The position numbers were made by a program, and so were the translations under genes. 64,000 nt of DNA, taken from assembly GCA_024222295.1 (NCBI GenBank), contig JAAEPF010000025.1, positions 124,001-188,000 on the forward strand, in the 5' to 3' direction. The stretch is from Actinomycetes bacterium. Its GTDB lineage: Bacteria; Actinomycetota; Acidimicrobiia; Acidimicrobiales; Microtrichaceae. Below are positions 2,053 to 38,034 of the stretch, in pieces (the stretch's first letter is position 1; each line of letters starts with the position of its first letter). The notes below the pieces were generated by a model. The model was given only the letters and a program-made list of their open reading frames with translations, did no database searches and had not been told where the DNA came from.

Positions 2053-2694
2053 ATGAATAAGATCACACGCCCGCGCATGCAGGCAATCGTCGCGACGGCA
2101 GCGGCGCTCATGCTGTTGGCCGGAGCGTGCTCCAGCGACGACAGCGACGAAACCACCACGACCTCTGAGGCTTCCGGCGGTTCGGGCGGCGGCGAGAGCG
2201 CCCAGACCAAGAAGTACAACGAGGAGATCCAGCAGGAACTGAAGGACGTCGGCTGCTACACCGGCGCGGATGACGGGATCGTCGGTCCCGAGACCGATGC
2301 TGCGATCGTGGCATTCCAGAAGGCCGAGGGCCTGACACCCGACGGCGAGGTCGGCTCCAAGACCCAGGAAGCGCTCACCAAGGCCGTTGATGCCGGCACG
2401 AAGGTCTGTGACGGATCGACGCCGACGTCGTCGACGACGACCACCACCCCCTCGGGTGGCACGGCTCCGTGCACCGGCACCGCCATCGCTGCGGGCCTGC
2501 CCTCGGGTGACACCGCCAGCTCGTACATCTGCTCCGACGGCTTCGCCGGTGTGTCGCTCTCGAATGGCAACGGCATCATCCTCGAGTCGGTCGACGGCAA
2601 GTGGGAAGTCCCGGGCCAGGACCCGTGTGGCTCGGCCAGCGCCGGCATCGACCCCGAGATCCTCGACAAGGGCTGCGTCGGAGACAACGGCTGA
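2053..2694 (+). CDS. peptidoglycan-binding lipoprotein
   Basis: This 213-residue protein starts at ATG 2053, eight bases or so after an AGGAGAGG ribosome-binding site; longer upstream reading is a shadow of the opposite-strand acyltransferase gene. It has a lipoprotein signal: basic N-terminus, hydrophobic stretch and lipobox LLAGAC with Cys26 as the lipidated residue. A Ser/Thr/Gly-rich linker leads to a peptidoglycan-binding-1 fold at about residues 54-112 (YNEEIQQELK...DGIVGPET...FQKAEGL). A Thr-rich linker and an unrecognised C-terminal domain with four cysteines (about 138-213) follow. It is probably anchored outside the membrane and contacts the cell wall. A TAGTTT at 1998-2003 could be its -10 box. 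A strong intrinsic terminator follows. Confidence 0.85.
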   Translation: MNKITRPRMQAIVATAAALMLLAGACSSDDSDETTTTSEASGGSGGGESAQTKKYNEEIQQELKDVGCYTGADDGIVGPETDAAIVAFQKAEGLTPDGEVGSKTQEALTKAVDAGTKVCDGSTPTSSTTTTTPSGGTAPCTGTAIAAGLPSGDTASSYICSDGFAGVSLSNGNGIILESVDGKWEVPGQDPCGSASAGIDPEILDKGCVGDNG

Positions 2695-2712: not shown

Positions 2713-2760
2713 GGCCCGGCGGTGCCGCAACACGCGGCCCTGCCGGGCCTGGGTCGTTTT
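2713..2760 (+). terminator. intrinsic terminator of the lipoprotein gene
   Basis: A GC-rich stem pairs 2713-2728 with 2734-2749 (16 pairs with one G-U and one mismatch) around an AACAC loop. It is followed by TGGGTCGTTTT, a short T-rich run. It lies 18 bases after the lipoprotein stop codon and reads in the right direction. Confidence 0.7.
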
Positions 2761-2766
2761 GCGGCC

Positions 2767-2813
2767 CTTTGTTGGTGCTCAATCACGCATAGCGTGATTG
2801 AGCACCAACAAAG
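2767..2813. repeat. 22-bp perfect palindrome, copy 1
   Basis: Bases 2767-2788 pair perfectly with 2792-2813 around a three-base ATA loop. The arm contains TTTGTTGGTGCTCAATCACG. It lies between the convergent lipoprotein and isomerase genes, just after the lipoprotein's own GC-rich terminator, and no T-run flanks it on either strand. A second copy at 37144-37194 has the same arm except for one swapped base pair. It may be a bidirectional terminator, a protein-binding site or a member of a dispersed repeat family. Confidence 0.85.
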
Positions 2814-2839: not shown

Positions 2840-3880
2840 TCAGGACTTGAGGCGGGCCTTGATGTCGTCGAGCAGCGGGATGGGCCCCGGGTCGACGCCG
2901 AGGTCGATCGCCAGGTGGAGAGTCGCCACGTCTCCGAACAGCGTCAGGTCCATGAACTGCGCCAGCGGTCCCTCACCCTCGGCCTGAACCGAGATCACGT
3001 CGGCCACGACCTCGTCGCACACCTCGGCCACGATCTCGAAGCGCCGGCCGACCTGAGGGTGCTCGAAGTCGTGGCGCAACAACAACAGGGTGAATACCTG
3101 TCGGGTCACGTCACCGTTCACCGCCCAACCGGCGATCTCGTTGTGGGTCAGCTCGGGCAGGCGGTTGGGCCAGCTCGGAACCTTGGGGTTCTCGTTGAAT
3201 TGGCCCTTCCAGCGCCATGCGGCAGCCTCACCGAGCACTCCCCCGCCGTACACCAGCGGCATCGTGCGGCCGATCTGGCGGGCCAGGCCGACAGCGGCGT
3301 TGTCGTCGCCTTCCAGCTTGGATGCGCGTTTGCGCAGCTGGGACACGGCGGCCTCGACCTGCGGTGTGACGTCGGGCAGCAATCCCATGCGCGCCAGCAC
3401 CACCAGCGGTGACACAGACACGGCTCCGATGCCTGCGCGGGGCATAGGGATCGCCGGGTCGAACTGCACCAGCGGTGCGCCCCACTCGTCGGCCAGGCGT
3501 GCGAGCTCGCCACCGGAGGCCATCACGACCATGCGCGCACCGGCCTCCGCTGCCGCGGTGGCCGCAGCCACGGTCTCCTCGGTGTTGCCGGAGAACGAGC
3601 TGGCGAGCACCACCGTGTCGGGCCCGACCCATGCGGGGCACTCGTAGTGCTTCGACACGAGCACCGGCACGGCGGCGTCGGGAGCGGCCACGGCCGCGGC
3701 CACGTCACCACCGATTCCGCTTCCACCCATCCCCATCACGATGGCCGCGGTTGCGCCGTCGCCCGAGGGCAGGCCGTCGACATCGGCGGCCACCGCGGCG
3801 GCGTGTTCGATCTGGTCCGGCAGCGCGAACGTGGCGCCGAACATGTCGAGGCTGTCAGCCTCGTGCAGGTCTGCAGGCAT
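2840..3880 (-). CDS. bifunctional phosphoglucose/phosphomannose isomerase
   Basis: A 346-residue SIS-domain protein of the short bacterial/archaeal PGI/PMI family. It interconverts fructose-6-phosphate with glucose-6-phosphate or mannose-6-phosphate in the cytoplasm, feeding mannose into GDP-mannose synthesis. Sugar-phosphate-binding SIS motifs are visible: GMGGSGIGGD (50-59) and SSFSGNTEET (94-103). The C-terminal half carries family-typical residues in FNENPK (228-233) and ELTHNEIAGW (243-252), the latter with the conserved Glu and His. The length is normal. It is the last gene of a minus-strand run manB, Trm112-like, isomerase, with a 13-base gap to the preceding gene. The same order is known in other actinobacteria, which strengthens the mannose assignment. 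Confidence 0.88.
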   Translation of the reverse strand: MPADLHEADSLDMFGATFALPDQIEHAAAVAADVDGLPSGDGATAAIVMGMGGSGIGGDVAAAVAAPDAAVPVLVSKHYECPAWVGPDTVVLASSFSGNTEETVAAATAAAEAGARMVVMASGGELARLADEWGAPLVQFDPAIPMPRAGIGAVSVSPLVVLARMGLLPDVTPQVEAAVSQLRKRASKLEGDDNAAVGLARQIGRTMPLVYGGGVLGEAAAWRWKGQFNENPKVPSWPNRLPELTHNEIAGWAVNGDVTRQVFTLLLLRHDFEHPQVGRRFEIVAEVCDEVVADVISVQAEGEGPLAQFMDLTLFGDVATLHLAIDLGVDPGPIPLLDDIKARLKS

Positions 3881-6800: not shown

Positions 6801-9721
6801 TCGTCGGGGGTCGGCTCCGGCGCGTCGCCCGGAACCGGGTCGCCTCCAACGGCCGACCCCACGAGGTCCTCGTCATGGCCGGCCGCGTCGCCGTAGCCGT
6901 CGGGGTCCTCGGGGTTGTCATCGACGGCTTCGCCGGGGCCGAGCAGGGCAGCCTCGGCTTCCTCTCGGCGCTGGTCGGCACGGGCGAGACCGACGGTGAG
7001 CACGACACCCACGATCGTCATCAGCCAGGCCAGCCAGTCGACCTTCGTGTGGCCGTAGGTGAGGGTGACTTCGTTGTCGGTGGGCACAACCACCATGAAG
7101 TTGGGCGACACGCGCCACGGACCCTCAGCACCGGAGGCATTCCAGTTGGGGAAGTACGACGTGCGCACGAGCACCGGCGAGCCGGTCTCGGAAACGGTGA
7201 AGGAGATCGAGTCGTTGGTCTCGCTGTAGTCGGTGACCTCGACATCCTGTGACGGTGCAGGCTCCGACGGAGCGTTGGCGGCGTCTTCACGGTCGATGCG
7301 GGGCCAGTCATCGGGCCCGGATGTCGCCAGCGGGGTGTCCCAGCGGGTCGGATCGAGGTACCAGTCGATCGCCGGGCCGGACGCCTTCGGCGGGTTGGGC
7401 ACCTCTTCGGTGGCTTCCGCACGTTCGCCGTAGACCCAGCCGTCGATGTGGTCGTCTTCCGGCGTGAGCACGACCGGCAGGTTCTGCAGTGGCACGACCG
7501 GGTCGGCATCAGCCACCTCGAACACCGTCCAGGTGCGCCCCTCACCGGAGGGCTGCGGGAACTCCTCGGTGGATGCGATCTCCGTGAGGTCGGGATTCGC
7601 GCGCGCCTCGTTGACCGCCTGGGGGCTGGCGGCAAGGTAGTAGCGCACACCCATGAGCTGGAGGTGCTCGATGCCCTGCTGCATGTTCCATCCGGGGTAC
7701 GGCAGGTCACGCTGGGCCGATGAGGGGTTGGGCGACAACTCCGACTGGTTGATGAAGTGGAACGGCGTGCTCGATGACGCCTCGAAGTACAGGCCTTCCA
7801 TCGAGCCGAGGCATCCGTCGGTGAAGTACGGCAGCAGCATCGGGGCCATCGGGGTGCCGAAGCGGTTGAGCTCGGACTCGTACTCCCACATCACGCGGCC
7901 ACAGCCGTTGTCTACGCCGACCTCCTCCATCATCGAGATCATGGCGGTGTACTCGTCGTAGGCCTTCGCCGGGTCTTCCAGCCCGGCGAAGTTGTAGCGG
8001 GCCCAGTTGGATGCGTTGTTGAGGTCCTCGAAGCGCCAGGGGCCCCACTTGTAGGCGGAGATCACTGTGCCGTCTTCCTTTTCGAACTGGGCGATCTCAC
8101 CGCCGGGCAGGCTCTGAAGCGACCCGGCCACGTACACCAGCGACACCGTGCCGACCACGAGGGTTGCCACCGCGGAGACGGCCCACGGTTCGTAGCGCGA
8201 GCCCATCAGGTCGCCCACCACGATCGCGAGCGCCCGGATCACCAGTGCCGCACCGAGCGCCGCAAGCAGGTAGAGGCACAGGTAGTAGAAGGGCAGCAGG
8301 CGGGCGTTCCACAGCCGCCACTGGGGCGCGAACACGAACAGCCAGCCGTAGGCCACGAGGGTCAGTGTTAGGAACCAGCCGATGCGTACCCGGTGCACCA
8401 GCGACAGGACCATGCCCACCGCTGCCAGTACGAACCACAGGTTGCGGTTGGCCATGTCGAACTGCTCGGCCTGGGGCCACAGGTATTCCGCGTAGTTGAC
8501 GTACTTCTCCCACCCCATGTCGTTGAGGAAGGCGCGGTTGAGGAAGAAGGGCACGAACCAGAAGGCGGCGAGCAGGAAGCCGACCGGCGCCACGACCACC
8601 GCGTAGCGGAATGCCCGCTGGTCCCAGTTGACGAGCATCGCGAGCGCAACGAGGGTGGCGAAGAACGGGAAGCCCTGCGGGGCGAATACGAGCATCAGAA
8701 CCGTGAAGCCCACGAGCAGGGTGCCGAACGTGCGCCCCCGGCGGTCCTTGTCCCACCAGGGTGTGCGGTCTTCGCGGCGGGTGAGCACCATCACCACCGT
8801 GGCAACCGCGATGAAGATCGCCGGGATCAGGTGGTTGAGGATCGTGAGCGCGAACAGCACCGCACCGAGGGCGCGGGCGCGGCCCGACTGCATACCCCTG
8901 AACAGCACCGCTAGGTAGAGCACGGCGAAGGTGAGTGAGATCGAAAAGGCGAACTCGCCCGCCATCGTCGACAAGATGTTGCCCCCGAGGATCGAGAACC
9001 CGTTGTCGAACAGGAAGAATGTGGCGCCGATCGCCAGCAGGGGCGGGCCGGGGAACGTGAGCTTCGCCGCGCGGCCAAGTGCCCATGCCGCCACCGGCAG
9101 GGTGACCAGGCCCGATACGGCCACCAGCTTGAAGGCGATGTTGTAGGAAACGTCGACCAGCAGCACTGCCACGAACACAGCGCCGACCCAGGTCATCACC
9201 CGGGCGAGGTGGGTGGTCACCCGCTTGGCGAGGAACCAGGCACCGACCAGCGATGCGGCGGCCAGCGGGATGCCCGCCCACAGCGGCAGGCCCACGTCGA
9301 GCCACACGATGATCAGCGACGGCACGACCATGTAGAAGGTGTAGGCCGGGAATCCCGCGTACCAGTCGGGCGTCCACCCGGTCAGCCGGAAGTTGGGCAG
9401 CAGTTCGTCGCGCAGGTAGGCGGGGCCCCACACATGGGCACCCATGTCGCCGCCGGTGGCCGTGGTATCCGAGAGGATCAGGTCGGGGCTGAGGGCGAAG
9501 AACACCCCGAAGCCGCACAGGATGGCCACCATGAGCCCGGCCCAGTCGAGCCAGTCGCGGGCCGGGTGCGTGGAGTCCGCCAGGGTGCGCAGGGGCTCCG
9601 TCCCGGCGGGGACAGCTGTGCTGTCGGGCGCGTCACCCCGGTCGTCGGTGCGTTGGTCTTCCACGGCGATCCATCGTTGCACGCCGTGGTGACAGAACAC
9701 GACCACGGTTCTTGCGGACAC
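6797..9721 (-). CDS. large GT-C-like membrane protein (PTPS-related / YfhO-like)
   Basis: A 974-residue polytopic membrane protein. Near residues 89-130 it has GGDMGAHVWGP followed by LTGWTPDWYAGFPAYTFY, the signature of the 6-pyruvoyl-tetrahydropterin-synthase-related membrane family; the early Asp and His resemble the first-loop catalytic region of GT-C glycosyltransferases. About a dozen hydrophobic segments follow, then a large extracytoplasmic domain (about 530-900), a last membrane segment and an acidic cytoplasmic tail. It is coupled by a four-base overlap to the GtrA-GT2 lipid-linked sugar synthase, so a role as a sugar transferase using polyprenyl-phosphate sugar is a reasonable inference. 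The start is uncertain: GTG 9721 is the first possible, GTG 9664 would remove 19 unlikely-looking residues. Confidence 0.75.
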   Translation of the reverse strand: MSARTVVVFCHHGVQRWIAVEDQRTDDRGDAPDSTAVPAGTEPLRTLADSTHPARDWLDWAGLMVAILCGFGVFFALSPDLILSDTTATGGDMGAHVWGPAYLRDELLPNFRLTGWTPDWYAGFPAYTFYMVVPSLIIVWLDVGLPLWAGIPLAAASLVGAWFLAKRVTTHLARVMTWVGAVFVAVLLVDVSYNIAFKLVAVSGLVTLPVAAWALGRAAKLTFPGPPLLAIGATFFLFDNGFSILGGNILSTMAGEFAFSISLTFAVLYLAVLFRGMQSGRARALGAVLFALTILNHLIPAIFIAVATVVMVLTRREDRTPWWDKDRRGRTFGTLLVGFTVLMLVFAPQGFPFFATLVALAMLVNWDQRAFRYAVVVAPVGFLLAAFWFVPFFLNRAFLNDMGWEKYVNYAEYLWPQAEQFDMANRNLWFVLAAVGMVLSLVHRVRIGWFLTLTLVAYGWLFVFAPQWRLWNARLLPFYYLCLYLLAALGAALVIRALAIVVGDLMGSRYEPWAVSAVATLVVGTVSLVYVAGSLQSLPGGEIAQFEKEDGTVISAYKWGPWRFEDLNNASNWARYNFAGLEDPAKAYDEYTAMISMMEEVGVDNGCGRVMWEYESELNRFGTPMAPMLLPYFTDGCLGSMEGLYFEASSSTPFHFINQSELSPNPSSAQRDLPYPGWNMQQGIEHLQLMGVRYYLAASPQAVNEARANPDLTEIASTEEFPQPSGEGRTWTVFEVADADPVVPLQNLPVVLTPEDDHIDGWVYGERAEATEEVPNPPKASGPAIDWYLDPTRWDTPLATSGPDDWPRIDREDAANAPSEPAPSQDVEVTDYSETNDSISFTVSETGSPVLVRTSYFPNWNASGAEGPWRVSPNFMVVVPTDNEVTLTYGHTKVDWLAWLMTIVGVVLTVGLARADQRREEAEAALLGPGEAVDDNPEDPDGYGDAAGHDEDLVGSAVGGDPVPGDAPEPTPDE

Positions 9722-35161: not shown

Positions 35162-36283
35162 GTGGTCACCCGTCGCAACGGCTCTTCGCTACACCCCGGC
35201 GAAGCAGGCGCGCTCGCAGTCGTGGGCGGCAGGCTGTGCACCGACCTCCAGGAGGTCACCAGCGACCTGTCCGCGCTGGACTCCACGGGGTTCTGGGCCG
35301 TGGTGATCCCGTTCGAGGGCGACCCGGTGTGCGCCCGTTTCGCCACGGTGCGCCCCGCACGGCCGTGGCCCGGACGGCCGTGGGTCGGGCCGGCGGCCGG
35401 CTCGTGGTCCTCGAGCCTCGACCGCGATGGTTTCACCGCCGCAGTGTCGACCATTCGCTCCGAGATCGCTGCGGGCGACGTGTACCAGGTGAACCTGACG
35501 CGTCGGCTGAGGGCGCCTCTGGCGAGCGCCGGGGCCCATGGTGCTGCCGGCCGACCGGACGTGGCCGCACTGGGCGCCGCACTGGCGGAGGGCAACCCGG
35601 CGCCCTACTCGGCGGTGGTGCGGTTGCCCGGGCACGGCGTCGAGGTGGCAAGTGCGTCGCCGGAGCGTTTCCTCGCCCGCAACGGCGACCGGGTGTGGTC
35701 CTCACCCATCAAGGGCACCTCGGCCACGGCGGACGGATTCCTCGACAAGGACCGTGCCGAGAACGTGATGATCGTGGACCTGGTTCGCAACGACCTGGGC
35801 CGCGTGTGCGAATGGGGAACCGTCGAGGTGCCGTCGCTGCTGGCGGTCGAGCCGCACCCCGGGCTGTTCCACCTCGTCTCGACCGTGCGGGGCTCGTTGC
35901 GGCCCGGCCTGGGCTGGGCCGACGCGATCGACGCAACATTCCCGCCGGGCTCGGTGACGGGCGCCCCGAAGATCGCAGCACTCGAGTCGATCGCCCGCCT
36001 CGAGCCCGACCCTCGCGGCGTCTACTGCGGTGCGATCGGCTGGGTCGACGCCGACCGTCAGGAGGGCGACCTCAACGTGGCGATCCGCACGTTCTGGATC
36101 GAGGACGACGAAATCAACTTCGGCACCGGCGGCGCGATCACCTGGGATTCGGTACCCGAGGGCGAGTGGGCCGAGACAGAGCTGAAGGCGGCCAACCTGC
36201 TGTCGGTCGCAGAGGGCGCAGGGTCCGCGGCGACAGCCTCACAGCGCGCAAGCGGCGCCGTCGGGCAGGATGTGCTGCGATGA
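35162..36283 (+). CDS. pabB: aminodeoxychorismate synthase component I
   Basis: A 373-residue chorismate-binding enzyme converting chorismate to 4-amino-4-deoxychorismate for folate synthesis. The catalytic block is complete: GDVYQVNLTRRL (105-116), SASPERFL (164-171), PIKGT with Lys184 (182-186), AENVMIVDLVRNDLGRV, the HLVSTVRG segment, FPPGSVTGAPK and YCGAIGW. The PIKGT lysine indicates a PabB and not an anthranilate synthase. The usual arginine after PIKGT is replaced (TSATADG), and at 373 residues the N-terminal half is shorter than typical PabB (about 450). The GTG start follows a leaderless-type hexamer. pabC overlaps its stop. No glutaminase subunit is in the window. Confidence 0.9.
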   Translation: MVTRRNGSSLHPGEAGALAVVGGRLCTDLQEVTSDLSALDSTGFWAVVIPFEGDPVCARFATVRPARPWPGRPWVGPAAGSWSSSLDRDGFTAAVSTIRSEIAAGDVYQVNLTRRLRAPLASAGAHGAAGRPDVAALGAALAEGNPAPYSAVVRLPGHGVEVASASPERFLARNGDRVWSSPIKGTSATADGFLDKDRAENVMIVDLVRNDLGRVCEWGTVEVPSLLAVEPHPGLFHLVSTVRGSLRPGLGWADAIDATFPPGSVTGAPKIAALESIARLEPDPRGVYCGAIGWVDADRQEGDLNVAIRTFWIEDDEINFGTGGAITWDSVPEGEWAETELKAANLLSVAEGAGSAATASQRASGAVGQDVLR

Positions 36284-37131
36284 GCCAGCCCAACCAGCCT
36301 GTGGTCTGGATAGACGGCGCGCTGCGCGAGCCGCATGCGGGGCTGCACTGGTCCGACCACGGCATCACCGTGGGCGATGGTGTGTTCGAGACCATCAAGT
36401 TGGTCGGCAACCGGCCTTTCGCCCTCGAGCCACACCTCGACCGTCTGGCCCATTCGGCCGGTGGGCTGGGCCTCGGGGTGCCGTCACGCAAAGACCTGGA
36501 TGTGGCGATCGCCGAAGTGGCCGCAGCCTGGGCGGAATCGGCCGGCCCGTCCACACTCGGCCGGCTCAGGATCACGGTCACCGGCGGCCCCGGCCCGATG
36601 GGTTCTGACCGAGGCGACGGCGGCCCCACCCTGATGGTGACCGCCGGCGACATGGAGCTGAGACGCACCCCGGCCGCAGTGGTCGTGGTGCCCTGGACCC
36701 GAAACGAGCAGGGCGCGGTGGCAGGTCTCAAGACCACGAGCTATGCGGAGAACGTGGTGGCGCTCGCCCGCGCCAAGCGTGACGGGGCCGAGGAGGCGAT
36801 ATTCGCCAACACACGTGGCGAGTTGTGTGAAGGAACGGGCGCCAACGTGTTCGTGGGCGTCGACGGCGCGCTGGTGACCCCACCACTCGACTCCGGATGC
36901 CTTGCGGGCGTGACGCGGGCACTGGTGATCGAGGCGCTGGCCGGATCCGGGGTGATCGTGCAGGAGCGTCCACTGCCGGTCGCTGCTCTGGCAGACGGTG
37001 AAGAGGCGTTTCTCACCTCCACCGGCCGTGAGGTACAGCCGGTGGGCAGTGTGGATGGCGACGCGTTGCCCGCAGCGCCGGGGCCGTTGACCCTCGCGGC
37101 CCAGTCGGCCTGGGACGATCGGTACGCCTGA
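36280..37131 (+). CDS. pabC: aminodeoxychorismate lyase
   Basis: A 283-residue PLP enzyme of fold type IV (branched-chain aminotransferase-like). It releases pyruvate from aminodeoxychorismate to give 4-aminobenzoate. Features: HGITVGDGVFET (27-38), the PLP-binding Lys151 in GLKTTSY and the LCEGTGANVFV segment. The ATG overlaps the pabB stop by four bases (ATGA), and the pairing supports PabC over D-amino-acid or branched-chain aminotransferase. It is followed by a 23-bp palindrome that separates it from the convergent birA. Confidence 0.9.
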   Translation: MSQPNQPVVWIDGALREPHAGLHWSDHGITVGDGVFETIKLVGNRPFALEPHLDRLAHSAGGLGLGVPSRKDLDVAIAEVAAAWAESAGPSTLGRLRITVTGGPGPMGSDRGDGGPTLMVTAGDMELRRTPAAVVVVPWTRNEQGAVAGLKTTSYAENVVALARAKRDGAEEAIFANTRGELCEGTGANVFVGVDGALVTPPLDSGCLAGVTRALVIEALAGSGVIVQERPLPVAALADGEEAFLTSTGREVQPVGSVDGDALPAAPGPLTLAAQSAWDDRYA

Positions 37132-37143
37132 ACCAGCGCGAGT

Positions 37144-37194
37144 CGCTTTGTTGGTGCTGAATCACGCCTGACGTGATTCAGCACCAACAAAGCG
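37144..37194. repeat. 23-bp perfect palindrome, copy 2
   Basis: Bases 37144-37166 pair perfectly with 37172-37194 around CCTGA. The core arm TTTGTTGGTGCT-GAATCACG equals that of 2767-2813 except that the C-G pair at 2780/2800 is G-C here (37159/37179), a compensatory change. It lies between convergent pabC and birA. Neither side has a T-run apart from the CTTTG in the arm itself. Confidence 0.85.
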
Positions 37195-37209: not shown

Positions 37210-38034
37210 TCAGGCGGGGCGGACGTGGATCACGTCGCCCACCACCACCCGGTGGATCTCTGAGTTCTCCCCCGCCTCGACGAGTAGCGCACCATCGGCG
37301 TCGAGTCCGACTGCGCGCCCTTCCACTTCGCCGTGGGGCAGGTGCACCTCGACATCGCGGCCGATCGTGGCCGAGTGACTCTTCGCCTCCGCCACGACTG
37401 CAGCCGCACCGTCCTCGTCGTCGAGCAGTTCCATCCGCCGGGCGAAGCCTCCGAGCAGTGCGACGGCGAGATCCTCGCGGTCGACCTCGCGGTCAACGTG
37501 GATGTCGAGCGACGTGGCGATGCCGACGAGCGAGTCGTGGATCTGACCCCAGTTGCAGTTGAGTCCGATGCCCACCGCAAGGGCCACCTGCCCGGTGTCG
37601 AGCGGTGTGGCTTCAGCGAGGACACCGCCCACCTTGAGATCGCGTCCATCGTCGCCGGCGCCGACTGAGACGATGTCGTTGGGCCACTTGATGTGGGCCT
37701 CGAAGCTGAGCTCGGAGTCCAGCGCCTCCACCGCGGCGAGCGACATAGCGGTCAGCACGAGCCCGCGGCGGTCGGGGTCGATTGCCTGGGTGGTACCGGC
37801 AGTCATCAGCAGCGAGGAGCCCGCGGGTGCCTCCCACGTGCGGTCGAGGCGTCCGCGCCCTGCAGTCTGGTGGTCTGCGACGAGTGCCACGTCAATGCAG
37901 TCCCGGGGCCGCTCGATCGCTGCATCAGCAAGGAATTCGGCCACGTCGAGGTTGGTGGAGCCGGTCTCGGAGACCCAACGGAGATCGGAGAATCGGGTGT
38001 CGGCAAGTGCTGCTTTGGCGCGGGTGAAGCTCAT
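37210..38034 (-). CDS. birA: biotin--[acetyl-CoA-carboxylase] ligase, without DNA-binding domain
   Basis: A 274-residue biotin protein ligase: GSTNLD near 25-30, the biotinyl-AMP loop GRGRLDRTWEAP (59-70), KWPND (116-120) and KVGGVLAE, then a C-terminal SH3-like cap. It lacks the N-terminal helix-turn-helix of E. coli BirA, so it is an enzyme only and not a repressor. ATG 38034 is chosen since TATCTT lies six bases upstream and the extra residues from 38133 fall in the opposite gene. The divergent neighbour, 16 bases away, encodes a protein with the biotin-attachment motif, an apparent substrate. Confidence 0.92.
   Translation of the reverse strand: MSFTRAKAALADTRFSDLRWVSETGSTNLDVAEFLADAAIERPRDCIDVALVADHQTAGRGRLDRTWEAPAGSSLLMTAGTTQAIDPDRRGLVLTAMSLAAVEALDSELSFEAHIKWPNDIVSVGAGDDGRDLKVGGVLAEATPLDTGQVALAVGIGLNCNWGQIHDSLVGIATSLDIHVDREVDREDLAVALLGGFARRMELLDDEDGAAAVVAEAKSHSATIGRDVEVHLPHGEVEGRAVGLDADGALLVEAGENSEIHRVVVGDVIHVRPA

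What the first reader, a model, noticed from the sequence alone, without database searches (positions are those of the whole stretch)
2767..2813. Two long perfect palindromes 34 kb apart with a compensatory base-pair change
The 22-bp palindrome at 2767-2813 and the 23-bp palindrome at 37144-37194 share the same arm (TTTGTTGGTGCT, then one variable base, then AATCACG). The one arm difference is a C-G to G-C swap on both sides, so symmetry is maintained although sequence changed. The loops differ (ATA and CCTGA). Both sit between convergent gene pairs. Stems this long cannot be chance, and the swap suggests selection on structure or dyad symmetry. The first copy follows a separate GC-rich terminator, so it is not needed to end that transcript. 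A dispersed palindromic family, a bidirectional terminator class or a binding site for a nucleoid protein are the options.
Basis: partly seen in the sequence, partly recalled or inferred. Interest (0 to 1): 0.65.

Follow-up and report, generated by a model that had tools for sequence, protein, structure and literature searches.

The report
Dispersed palindromes paired with a nuclease
The two palindromes are members of a family of about 47 similar 49-base inverted repeats scattered through this genome, mostly just after gene ends, and one pair of them brackets a gene for a DNA-binding nuclease, an arrangement that recurs with different palindrome sequences in related bacteria and suggests an undescribed REP-like palindrome-nuclease system.

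Summary
A covariance model finds 48 places in the genome, 47 convincing. Of 46 places called intergenic, 23 are convergent, 19 tandem, 4 divergent (convergent share p 2.5e-11). None of 40 relatives shares the stem, apart from one weak partial match. But 15 of 41 genomes hold six or more palindrome-like pairs with the foot TTCTGT...ACAGAA, mostly with private stems. The elements fail REP tests (no GTAG/CGTC tag, no Y1 transposase) and show no U-tract or target duplication. A wobble test on tandem copies, 44 G-U against 47 C-A, speaks against RNA-level selection. All 7 distinct homologues of an AbiEi-winged-helix plus DUF559-type nuclease protein found in held DNA have a matching pair of palindromes on both sides: five with the genome's dispersed family, two (G030, G036) with a pair not known elsewhere in that genome. 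In G011 palindrome plus gene is absent from sister species G021. AbiEi binds a 23-N3-23 bp inverted repeat (PMC3985639). Best reading: a REP/RAYT-like system with a different enzyme; binding and mobilisation are inferred.

The parts
2767..2813 (.). Solo palindrome, copy 1 (perfect arms 2767-2788 and 2792-2813, centre 2789-2791)
   Evidence: model match G000:C25:126764-126816, E 3.5e-17
37144..37194 (.). Solo palindrome, copy 2 (G-47-C core 37145-37193 plus one more complementary base on each side; perfect 23-bp arms, 5-base centre)
   Evidence: model match G000:C25:161143-161195, E 1.4e-18
2077..2694 (+). Gene upstream of copy 1; stop codon 71 bp from the 49-bp frame
   Evidence: gene call; ORF; not annotated further
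2840..3880 (-). Gene convergent on copy 1; looks like a sugar-phosphate isomerase (name recalled, from no call)
36280..37131 (+). Gene upstream of copy 2; looks like an aminotransferase class IV (name recalled); its homologue in G011 (62% identity) also has a palindrome just downstream, with a different stem
37210..38034 (-). Gene convergent on copy 2; looks like a biotin ligase (name recalled)

Best explanation
The two palindromes are solo copies of a REP-like dispersed element, a sharply bounded 49-bp DNA dyad (G-47-C). Its partner is a protein with an N-terminal AbiEi-type winged-helix module and a C-terminal DUF559/MTES_1575-type nuclease domain, encoded at G000:C17 about 80361-81371 (start codon assumed) between two copies of the same palindrome. 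Shown: the family, its positions, its common foot with private stems in relatives, the bracketing of the nuclease gene in several genomes, co-occurrence of gene and palindromes across genomes, and the presence/absence of gene plus palindrome between two sister species. Inferred: the AbiEi module binds the dyad as a dimer; the nuclease cuts at or beside it; repair from other copies spreads palindromes, occasionally with the gene, and homogenises the arms, so that each genus has its own stem. Copies persist mainly just after stop codons because they do least harm there.
For: Family: 48 places, 47 convincing; strong paired covariation, 91% of cells paired against 31-46% when slid. Stem and foot conserved (diversity 0.15 and 0.30) while centre (0.55) and flanks (0.68) are not. 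Class: foot TTCTGT...ACAGAA at near-fixed length with private stems; at least 6 matches in 15 of 41 genomes (G030's 33 have non-palindromic insides); reversed-pattern control at most 4. Partner: 7 of 7 distinct nuclease homologues in held DNA (E up to 1e-4) have a pair of like palindromes at both ends: G000, G004, G005, G011, G027 with the dispersed family; G036 (its only 2 pattern matches) and G030 (another palindrome) with a pair not known elsewhere in the genome. The right-hand copies of G027 and G036 are imperfect and come from the pattern lists, not from the hairpin scan. G037 from coordinates: gene C37:8490-9413 between copies at 8437-8483 and 9439-9485. Of 13 inter-palindrome intervals under 2.5 kb in seven genomes with full lists, 4 hold the nuclease, including the only interval of G027 and of G037. 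Other genes flanked on both sides: 2 of 409 (G000), 2 of 327 (G004), 5 of 158 (G005), 2 of 88 (G011); 10 of these 11 were scanned and none is nuclease-like. Genome-level co-occurrence without the 7 query genomes: 7 of 9 against 3 of 25, p 0.0007. Palindrome + gene present in G011, 17 bp instead in G021. Domains. AbiEi binds a 23-N3-23 bp inverted repeat (PMC3985639, passages).
Against: No transposition, cutting or binding was seen. No target-site duplication. Palindromes stay at the same junctions in two sister species, so they are not hopping quickly. G021 keeps palindromes without any nuclease match at 1e-10; G010 and G020 have high-scoring nucleases but no strict foot match; G007 and G037 have 7-8 palindromes with lower-scoring nucleases. 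G004's full strict list has one short interval, without the nuclease; its nuclease is bracketed by copies that the strict pattern misses. Most nuclease paralogues (9 others in G004, 14 others in G027, and G000:C2:102757) are not beside listed copies as far as coordinates show. Of the 7 held cases G005, G011, G027 and G036 lie in DNA fetched because of palindromes there; the flanking rates are the correction, but the gene caller missed the nuclease in G011 and flagged no gene as flanked in G027. The profile was built from the bracketed genes, hence the exclusion of query genomes; relatedness of genomes was otherwise not corrected for, except that the test within the own family gave p 0.008.
Confidence: 0.55

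Rival explanations
1. The palindrome is a chromosome-organising or roadblock site: a dimeric host DNA-binding protein binds it at gene ends, and the bracketing of a nuclease gene is secondary (for instance self-regulation by its AbiEi-like module).
For: DNA-level dyad with no RNA signature; copies at the same junctions in sister species, with 48, 47, 44 (all four changes an inverted centre) and 44 of 48 bases kept in four aligned pairs while flanks diverge; bias to convergent and 3' positions. In G004 19 of 26 strict copies lie in one half of the contig as deposited.
Against: Stems differ completely between genera of one family, unlike sites of conserved nucleoid proteins as I know them (recalled). 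The G004 copies are uneven but spread over the whole 4.66 Mb. Co-occurrence with one nuclease subfamily and its bracketing are not predicted.
Confidence: 0.17
2. The palindrome is a bidirectional 3'-end RNA hairpin: terminator, RNase III site or mRNA stabiliser.
For: Stem of about 22 bp; median 26 bases after the upstream stop codon in tandem copies and 19 in convergent ones in relatives.
Against: No U-tract (flanks); for copy 1 the scan marks a different hairpin at 2751-2767. G-U against C-A on the mRNA-sense strand: 44 against 47, no excess of RNA-tolerated pairs. A private conserved sequence is not needed for a hairpin.
Confidence: 0.12
3. The copies are back-to-back terminal repeats (MITE-like) of a classical insertion sequence, moved by a transposase not seen here.
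For: Fixed length, conserved ends, identical copies in G005.
Against: No target-site duplication; all 62 half-sites lie inside palindromes, so no longer element with these ends was found; no match in plasmids or phages and no exact match in viral contigs; no Y1 transposase in 39 of 41 genomes. DDE transposase families were not searched.
Confidence: 0.08
4. Arm symmetry is a by-product of template switching (quasipalindrome correction), with no function at all.
For: Centre inverted in place (TTTT against AAAA, L211 and L233); double symmetric changes with few intermediates (columns 17 and 18).
Against: Explains symmetry but not the conserved sequence, the shared foot, the positions or the nuclease.
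Confidence: 0.05

Closest known systems
REP elements with RAYT (TnpA-REP) tyrosine transposases, and REPINs
   Same: Short dispersed palindromes, many of them species-private, mostly downstream of genes between tandem and convergent ORFs (PMC3733652, abstract and passages); a nuclease-type gene bracketed by copies of the family.
   Different: No GTAG or CGTC tag, symmetric foot TTCTGT/ACAGAA, near-perfect dyad of 46-49 bp; no Y1_Tnp gene in G000 and in 39 of 41 genomes; the bracketed gene is an AbiEi-DUF559 nuclease. [quoted passage not shown]
abiE operator bound by AbiEi
   Same: Inverted repeat of 23-N3-23 bp (49 bp) bound by an AbiEi winged-helix protein (PMC3985639, passages); our dyad is 22-N5-22 in a 49-bp core and the bracketed protein carries an AbiEi module.
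   Different: Dispersed at gene ends instead of one operator in a promoter; no AbiEii toxin was looked for; the C-terminus is a nuclease.
EDxHD/Vsr-like homing endonucleases (I-Bth0305I)
   Same: Weak profile similarity of the C-terminal domain to the mobile-intron protein 3r3p (E 0.0055, 48 positions; that 3r3p is I-Bth0305I is recalled); I-Bth0305I dimerises on a target of nearly 60 bp (PMC3943268, passages).
   Different: Not in an intron or phage gene; whole palindromes at both ends; the invariant histidine of our family is not aligned to a histidine in 3r3p.
Integron attC sites; Neisserial DUS inverted pairs (both recalled)
   Same: attC: hairpins with conserved ends and private stems. 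DUS: inverted pairs after genes.
   Different: The core here has the opposite polarity (GTT inward of the foot); no cassette array. All 62 half-sites found lie in palindromes, not as single copies.

Membership tests
REP element (GTAG/CGTC superfamilies) | Dispersed, mostly intergenic palindrome at 3' ends of genes | tested here: met
REP element (GTAG/CGTC superfamilies) | Unpaired GTAG or CGTC tag at one end | tested here: not met
   Outside the 47-bp core only G before (42 of 47) and C after (40 of 47) are conserved
REP element (GTAG REPs) | RAYT (Y1_Tnp) gene in the genome | tested here: not met
   0 in G000; 2 of 41 genomes have one
Intrinsic terminator | GC-rich stem followed by a U-tract | tested here: not met
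   flanks of 47 copies; scan around copy 1
Functional RNA hairpin | G-U favoured over C-A on the transcribed strand | tested here: not met
   44 against 47 over tandem copies of seven genomes
MITE of a classical IS | Target-site duplication | tested here: not met
   (45 copies of G000, 15 of G005, 22 of others)
DNA uptake sequence | Abundant single copies | tested here: not met
   62 of 62 half-sites at up to 3 mismatches lie inside palindromes; 25 palindromes have both halves in the list, 12 one
AbiEi-bound inverted repeat | AbiEi-type module in the partner protein | tested here: met
   G000: AbiEi_4 31.1 bits over cut-off 25; G030 35.1; G004 and G011 below cut-off; G005, G027, G036 no Pfam match. 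PADLOC AbiEi models match the three scanned, G000, G005, G027
AbiEi-bound inverted repeat | Protein binds the palindrome | not testable with these tools
   needs EMSA or footprinting
DUF559/MTES_1575 nuclease superfamily | Profile match and conserved acidic residues | tested here: met
   G000: DUF559 26.6 bits over cut-off 20.6, MTES_1575 28.9 below its cut-off 38.2; G027 also over the DUF559 cut-off; the other rows below cut-offs, G011 none; E171, D201, E212, H219, D228 of P0001 invariant in 7 rows
EDxHD homing endonuclease | E, D, H, D active site and homing | tested here: inconclusive
   weak match to 3r3p only; homing not testable

The most novel reading that the evidence does not exclude
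A new kind of selfish or domesticated palindrome system, scattered through this bacterial phylum: an AbiEi-winged-helix/DUF559 nuclease, bracketed by two ~48-bp dyads with foot TTCTGT, cuts its dyads genome-wide and so drives their spread and concerted evolution; specificity (the private stem) and enzyme co-diverge from genus to genus. It would parallel REP/RAYT with an unrelated enzyme.
Probability: 0.4. Interest if true: 0.88.

Novelty: new variant of a known kind. Interest (0 to 1): 0.74.

Why it matters
REP sequences have been known for decades and, to my knowledge (recalled), the one partner enzyme class tied to them is the Y1 HUH transposases; CGTC REPs are said to lack a dedicated transposase (PMC3733652, abstract). 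A palindrome family bracketing a winged-helix nuclease would be a second, independent solution, and would give a role to AbiEi-DUF559 proteins, which occur in several copies in many of the genomes searched and whose nuclease domain Pfam still calls 'unknown function'. It makes a concrete, cheap test possible: does each protein bind and cut only its own genus's palindrome?

Tried and rejected
RAYT/Y1 transposase: absent from G000 and 39 of 41 genomes. Rfam: no match in the window at gathering threshold. Target-site duplications and outer stem pairing: none in G000; modest outer pairing in G005 (15 copies, z 2.6 at positions 3-14), not pursued. Conservation of position between genera: examples exist (aminotransferase gene in G000 and G011; two neighbouring genes of G000 that are convergent around a palindrome in G022; L086 and G001; L081 and G027), but the controlled test was not significant (10 of 30 against 14 of 53 high-identity hits, p 0.34), so it is not claimed. 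Restricted chromosomal domain in G004: copies spread over the contig but 19 of 26 in one half, not tested further. Mobile carriers: no palindrome in phages or plasmids, no exact one in viral contigs; no relative of three nucleases in plasmids or of one in phages; one partial viral-contig relative (L322), not followed. An exact-pattern scan of genome contigs found one stretch, in a Planctomycetota MAG inside a called gene, taken as chance. The first gene finder miscalled both junctions and was replaced. Literature: open-licence PMC only; the listings (capped at 8-15 papers each) showed no paper on this palindrome class or on DUF559 with palindromes. Passages of PMC12306157, PMC3733652, PMC3985639 and PMC3943268 were seen, no whole paper. 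Structure prediction was not used because the nuclease is not in the window and its locus was not fetched by a tool that the rule names.

Full report
Check of the observation. The palindromes at 2767-2813 (22-bp arms, 3-base centre) and 37144-37194 (23-bp arms, 5-base centre) are exactly as described and are the only inverted repeats in the window with perfect arms of 12 bp or more and a loop of at most 10. The arm has no match in shuffles. Both lie between convergent genes.

A genome-wide family. With up to 3 mismatches the half-site occurs 62 times, its reversed control never. A covariance model from 39 copies finds 96 strand-wise matches, i.e. 48 places; one (C23:228112, E 0.004) is doubtful, leaving 47. 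All 62 half-sites lie inside these palindromes; 25 palindromes have both halves in that list and 12 have one. On the 39 copies 90.9% of cells pair, against 31-46% when slid; column 17 is G-C in 32 and C-G in 7 with no intermediate, column 18 is G-C 20, A-U 16, C-G 1, other 2. The window's C-G/G-C difference is the column-17 change. The boundary is sharp: G before (42 of 47) and C after (40 of 47) the 47-bp core are conserved, and further out there is no consensus and no complementarity.

Where the copies lie. A home-made gene caller, checked on the window, puts 46 of 48 places between genes: 23 convergent, 19 tandem, 4 divergent; two fall in called genes, one of them the doubtful match. Background from 464 kb: 33, 152 and 66 junctions of at least 40 bp. 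The convergent share is far above chance (p 2.5e-11 by bases, 2e-9 by junctions). In tandem places the palindrome is closer to the upstream stop codon in 13 of 19.

Not RNA. A transition in one arm gives a G-U pair on one strand and a C-A pair on the other. If the RNA stem mattered, G-U should be commoner on the mRNA-sense strand. In tandem copies of G000 it is 22 against 21; in six relatives 22 against 26.

A class with private stems. The model finds nothing in 40 relatives except one weak partial match in G030. Yet hairpins in relatives' DNA share the outer bases, and the pattern TTCTGT-N22..45-ACAGAA occurs at least 6 times in 15 of 41 genomes (177 in G005), with reversed-pattern controls of 0 to 4. 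In the copies listed, inner stems are repeated within a genome and differ between genera. Two qualifications: in G030 the inside is not palindromic, so that set may be something else, and in G001 the inner halves pair poorly. Among 396 genomes of the phylum 48 match a narrower form; many of these are single hits that look like chance, but G216, G041, G131 and G344 have 6 to 17 matches, with repeated stems in those listed. G000 itself has only 3 strict matches, because its foot drifts among pyrimidines, so strict counts are lower bounds.

Stable in place, conserved in sequence. G011 and G021 are of one genus. Of 15 G011 sites held, five junctions carry a palindrome in both species (L199/L236, L203/L147, L209/L175, L211/L233, and L202/L237, where the G021 junction is some 570 bp longer), one (L174) is absent together with a gene, one (L208) is in broken synteny, and eight have no counterpart in the held DNA or, for L201, only a contig start. 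In four aligned pairs the intergenic flanks have many changes and indels while 48 (L203), 47 (L199), 44 (L211; the four changes are an inverted centre) and 44 (L209) of 48 bases are kept. Conservation of position between genera was tested and not established (p 0.34).

The partner gene. Around L174 the unit missing from G021 (17 bp in its place) is one palindrome plus an open reading frame whose homologue in G000 lies between palindromes C17:80262-80314 and 81338-81390. A profile started from these two proteins finds 7 distinct homologues (9 rows) in the held DNA that I scanned, at E up to 1e-4. Each has a pair of like palindromes at its ends: G000, G011, G005, G004 (two copies with the same 42-base hairpin) and G027 with the dispersed family; G036 with two 43-bp copies (L155 1501-1543 and 2518-2560), the only two pattern matches of that genome; G030 with another palindrome (TGAACAAACTGCGGAA) not known elsewhere in it. 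The right-hand copies of G027 and G036 are imperfect and not found by the hairpin scan; in G027, G030 and G036 a palindrome overlaps the end of the stretch matched by the profile, so the start codons that I used there are assumptions. As to how the DNA was chosen: C17:1-400000 was fetched as a background stretch of a copy-rich contig; G030's stretch was fetched for a weak hit about 100 kb away; G004's gene lies between two chosen sites; the other four come from palindrome loci. A later protein search gave G037:C37:8490-9413, exactly between palindromes 8437-8483 and 9439-9485 known.

How unlikely is it? Seven genomes have full palindrome lists (G000 by model; G004, G011, G015, G021, G027, G037 by the strict pattern). 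They hold 13 neighbouring-palindrome intervals under 2.5 kb; 4 hold the nuclease, one each in G000 (of 6), G011 (of 4), G027 (of 1) and G037 (of 1); G004's one interval does not, and G015 and G021 have none. With 2, 1, 15 and 10 nuclease matches in these four genomes and roughly one gene per kb, those four together are about 1e-10 by a rough product of mine. Genes flanked on both sides in the same held DNA: 3 of 410, 3 of 328, 6 of 159, 2 of 88, 0 of 169 (G000, G004, G005, G011, G027), the nuclease being one of them in the first three; the caller missed the G011 nuclease and did not flag the G027 one. Of the 11 other flanked genes 10 were scanned and are unrelated metabolic, transport or unknown genes. 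By genome, a nuclease match with E below 1e-90 goes with 6 or more strict palindromes in 12 of 16 against 3 of 25; without the seven query genomes 7 of 9 against 3 of 25 (p 0.0007); within the own family 7 of 9 against 2 of 12 (p 0.008). Relatedness was not otherwise corrected for.

What the partner is. The G000 protein (336 aa from the GTG at L034:2662; start assumed) has an AbiEi_4 winged helix (over the Pfam cut-off) and a C-terminal DUF559 domain (over cut-off; MTES_1575 below cut-off), and matches PADLOC AbiEi models over residues 27-196. The nuclease domain resembles solved endonucleases (3hrl, E 1.5e-5; PvuRts1I, 4e-4; the mobile-intron protein 3r3p, 0.0055). Pfam matches are weaker in other rows: L297 and L155 have only sub-cut-off nuclease matches, L174 only a sub-cut-off AbiEi match, and L274 no AbiEi match.

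Mechanism proposed. AbiEi of Streptococcus agalactiae binds an inverted repeat whose halves extend to 23 bp around 3 bases (PMC3985639, passages), the same size as this dyad. The EDxHD endonuclease I-Bth0305I dimerises on a target of nearly 60 bp (PMC3943268, passages). I therefore propose that the bracketed protein binds the dyad and cuts there, and that repair from sister copies spreads and homogenises palindromes. This explains private stems, symmetric double changes, an inverted centre and the bracketed gene. It does not by itself explain how new sites are chosen, and none of it is shown.

Verdict. Observation confirmed; family reading right; terminator reading not supported; the new element is the palindrome-nuclease pairing. 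It works like REP/RAYT but fails REP membership on two defining features.

Noticed in passing
window 2751-2767: A small GC hairpin ends exactly where palindrome copy 1 begins, so that the palindrome's TTTGTT foot stands where a U-tract would be; seen once only.
   Followed up: no
G030 (L119-L127, L131, L180): G030 has 33 matches TTCTGT...ACAGAA, mostly TTCTGTTC-N-GAACAGAA with unrelated insides, three of them in a 64-bp tandem array, and one of the two Y1_Tnp genes found; possibly a separate REP/RAYT set.
   Followed up: partly
G005 (L282-L301): At least four palindrome families with different stems coexist in one genome, 177 strict copies, some identical over all 48 bases among those listed.
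   Followed up: partly
flanks of palindromes in G000, G005 and other relatives: The 40 bases before a palindrome are C-rich and those after it G-rich on either strand, stronger in relatives.
   Followed up: no
G015:C236, G002:C19, G038:C26, G029:C14, G037:C25: Several nuclease homologues start within about 140 bases of a contig start, as if assemblies break at repeats beside them.
   Followed up: no
G000:C2:102757-103743: A second, more distant nuclease homologue in this genome without a palindrome of this family nearby.
   Followed up: no
L084:2529 (G000:C2:285924): A perfect palindrome of the family with a different middle (GTTCGAGTGAGATCAC) inside a called gene.
   Followed up: no
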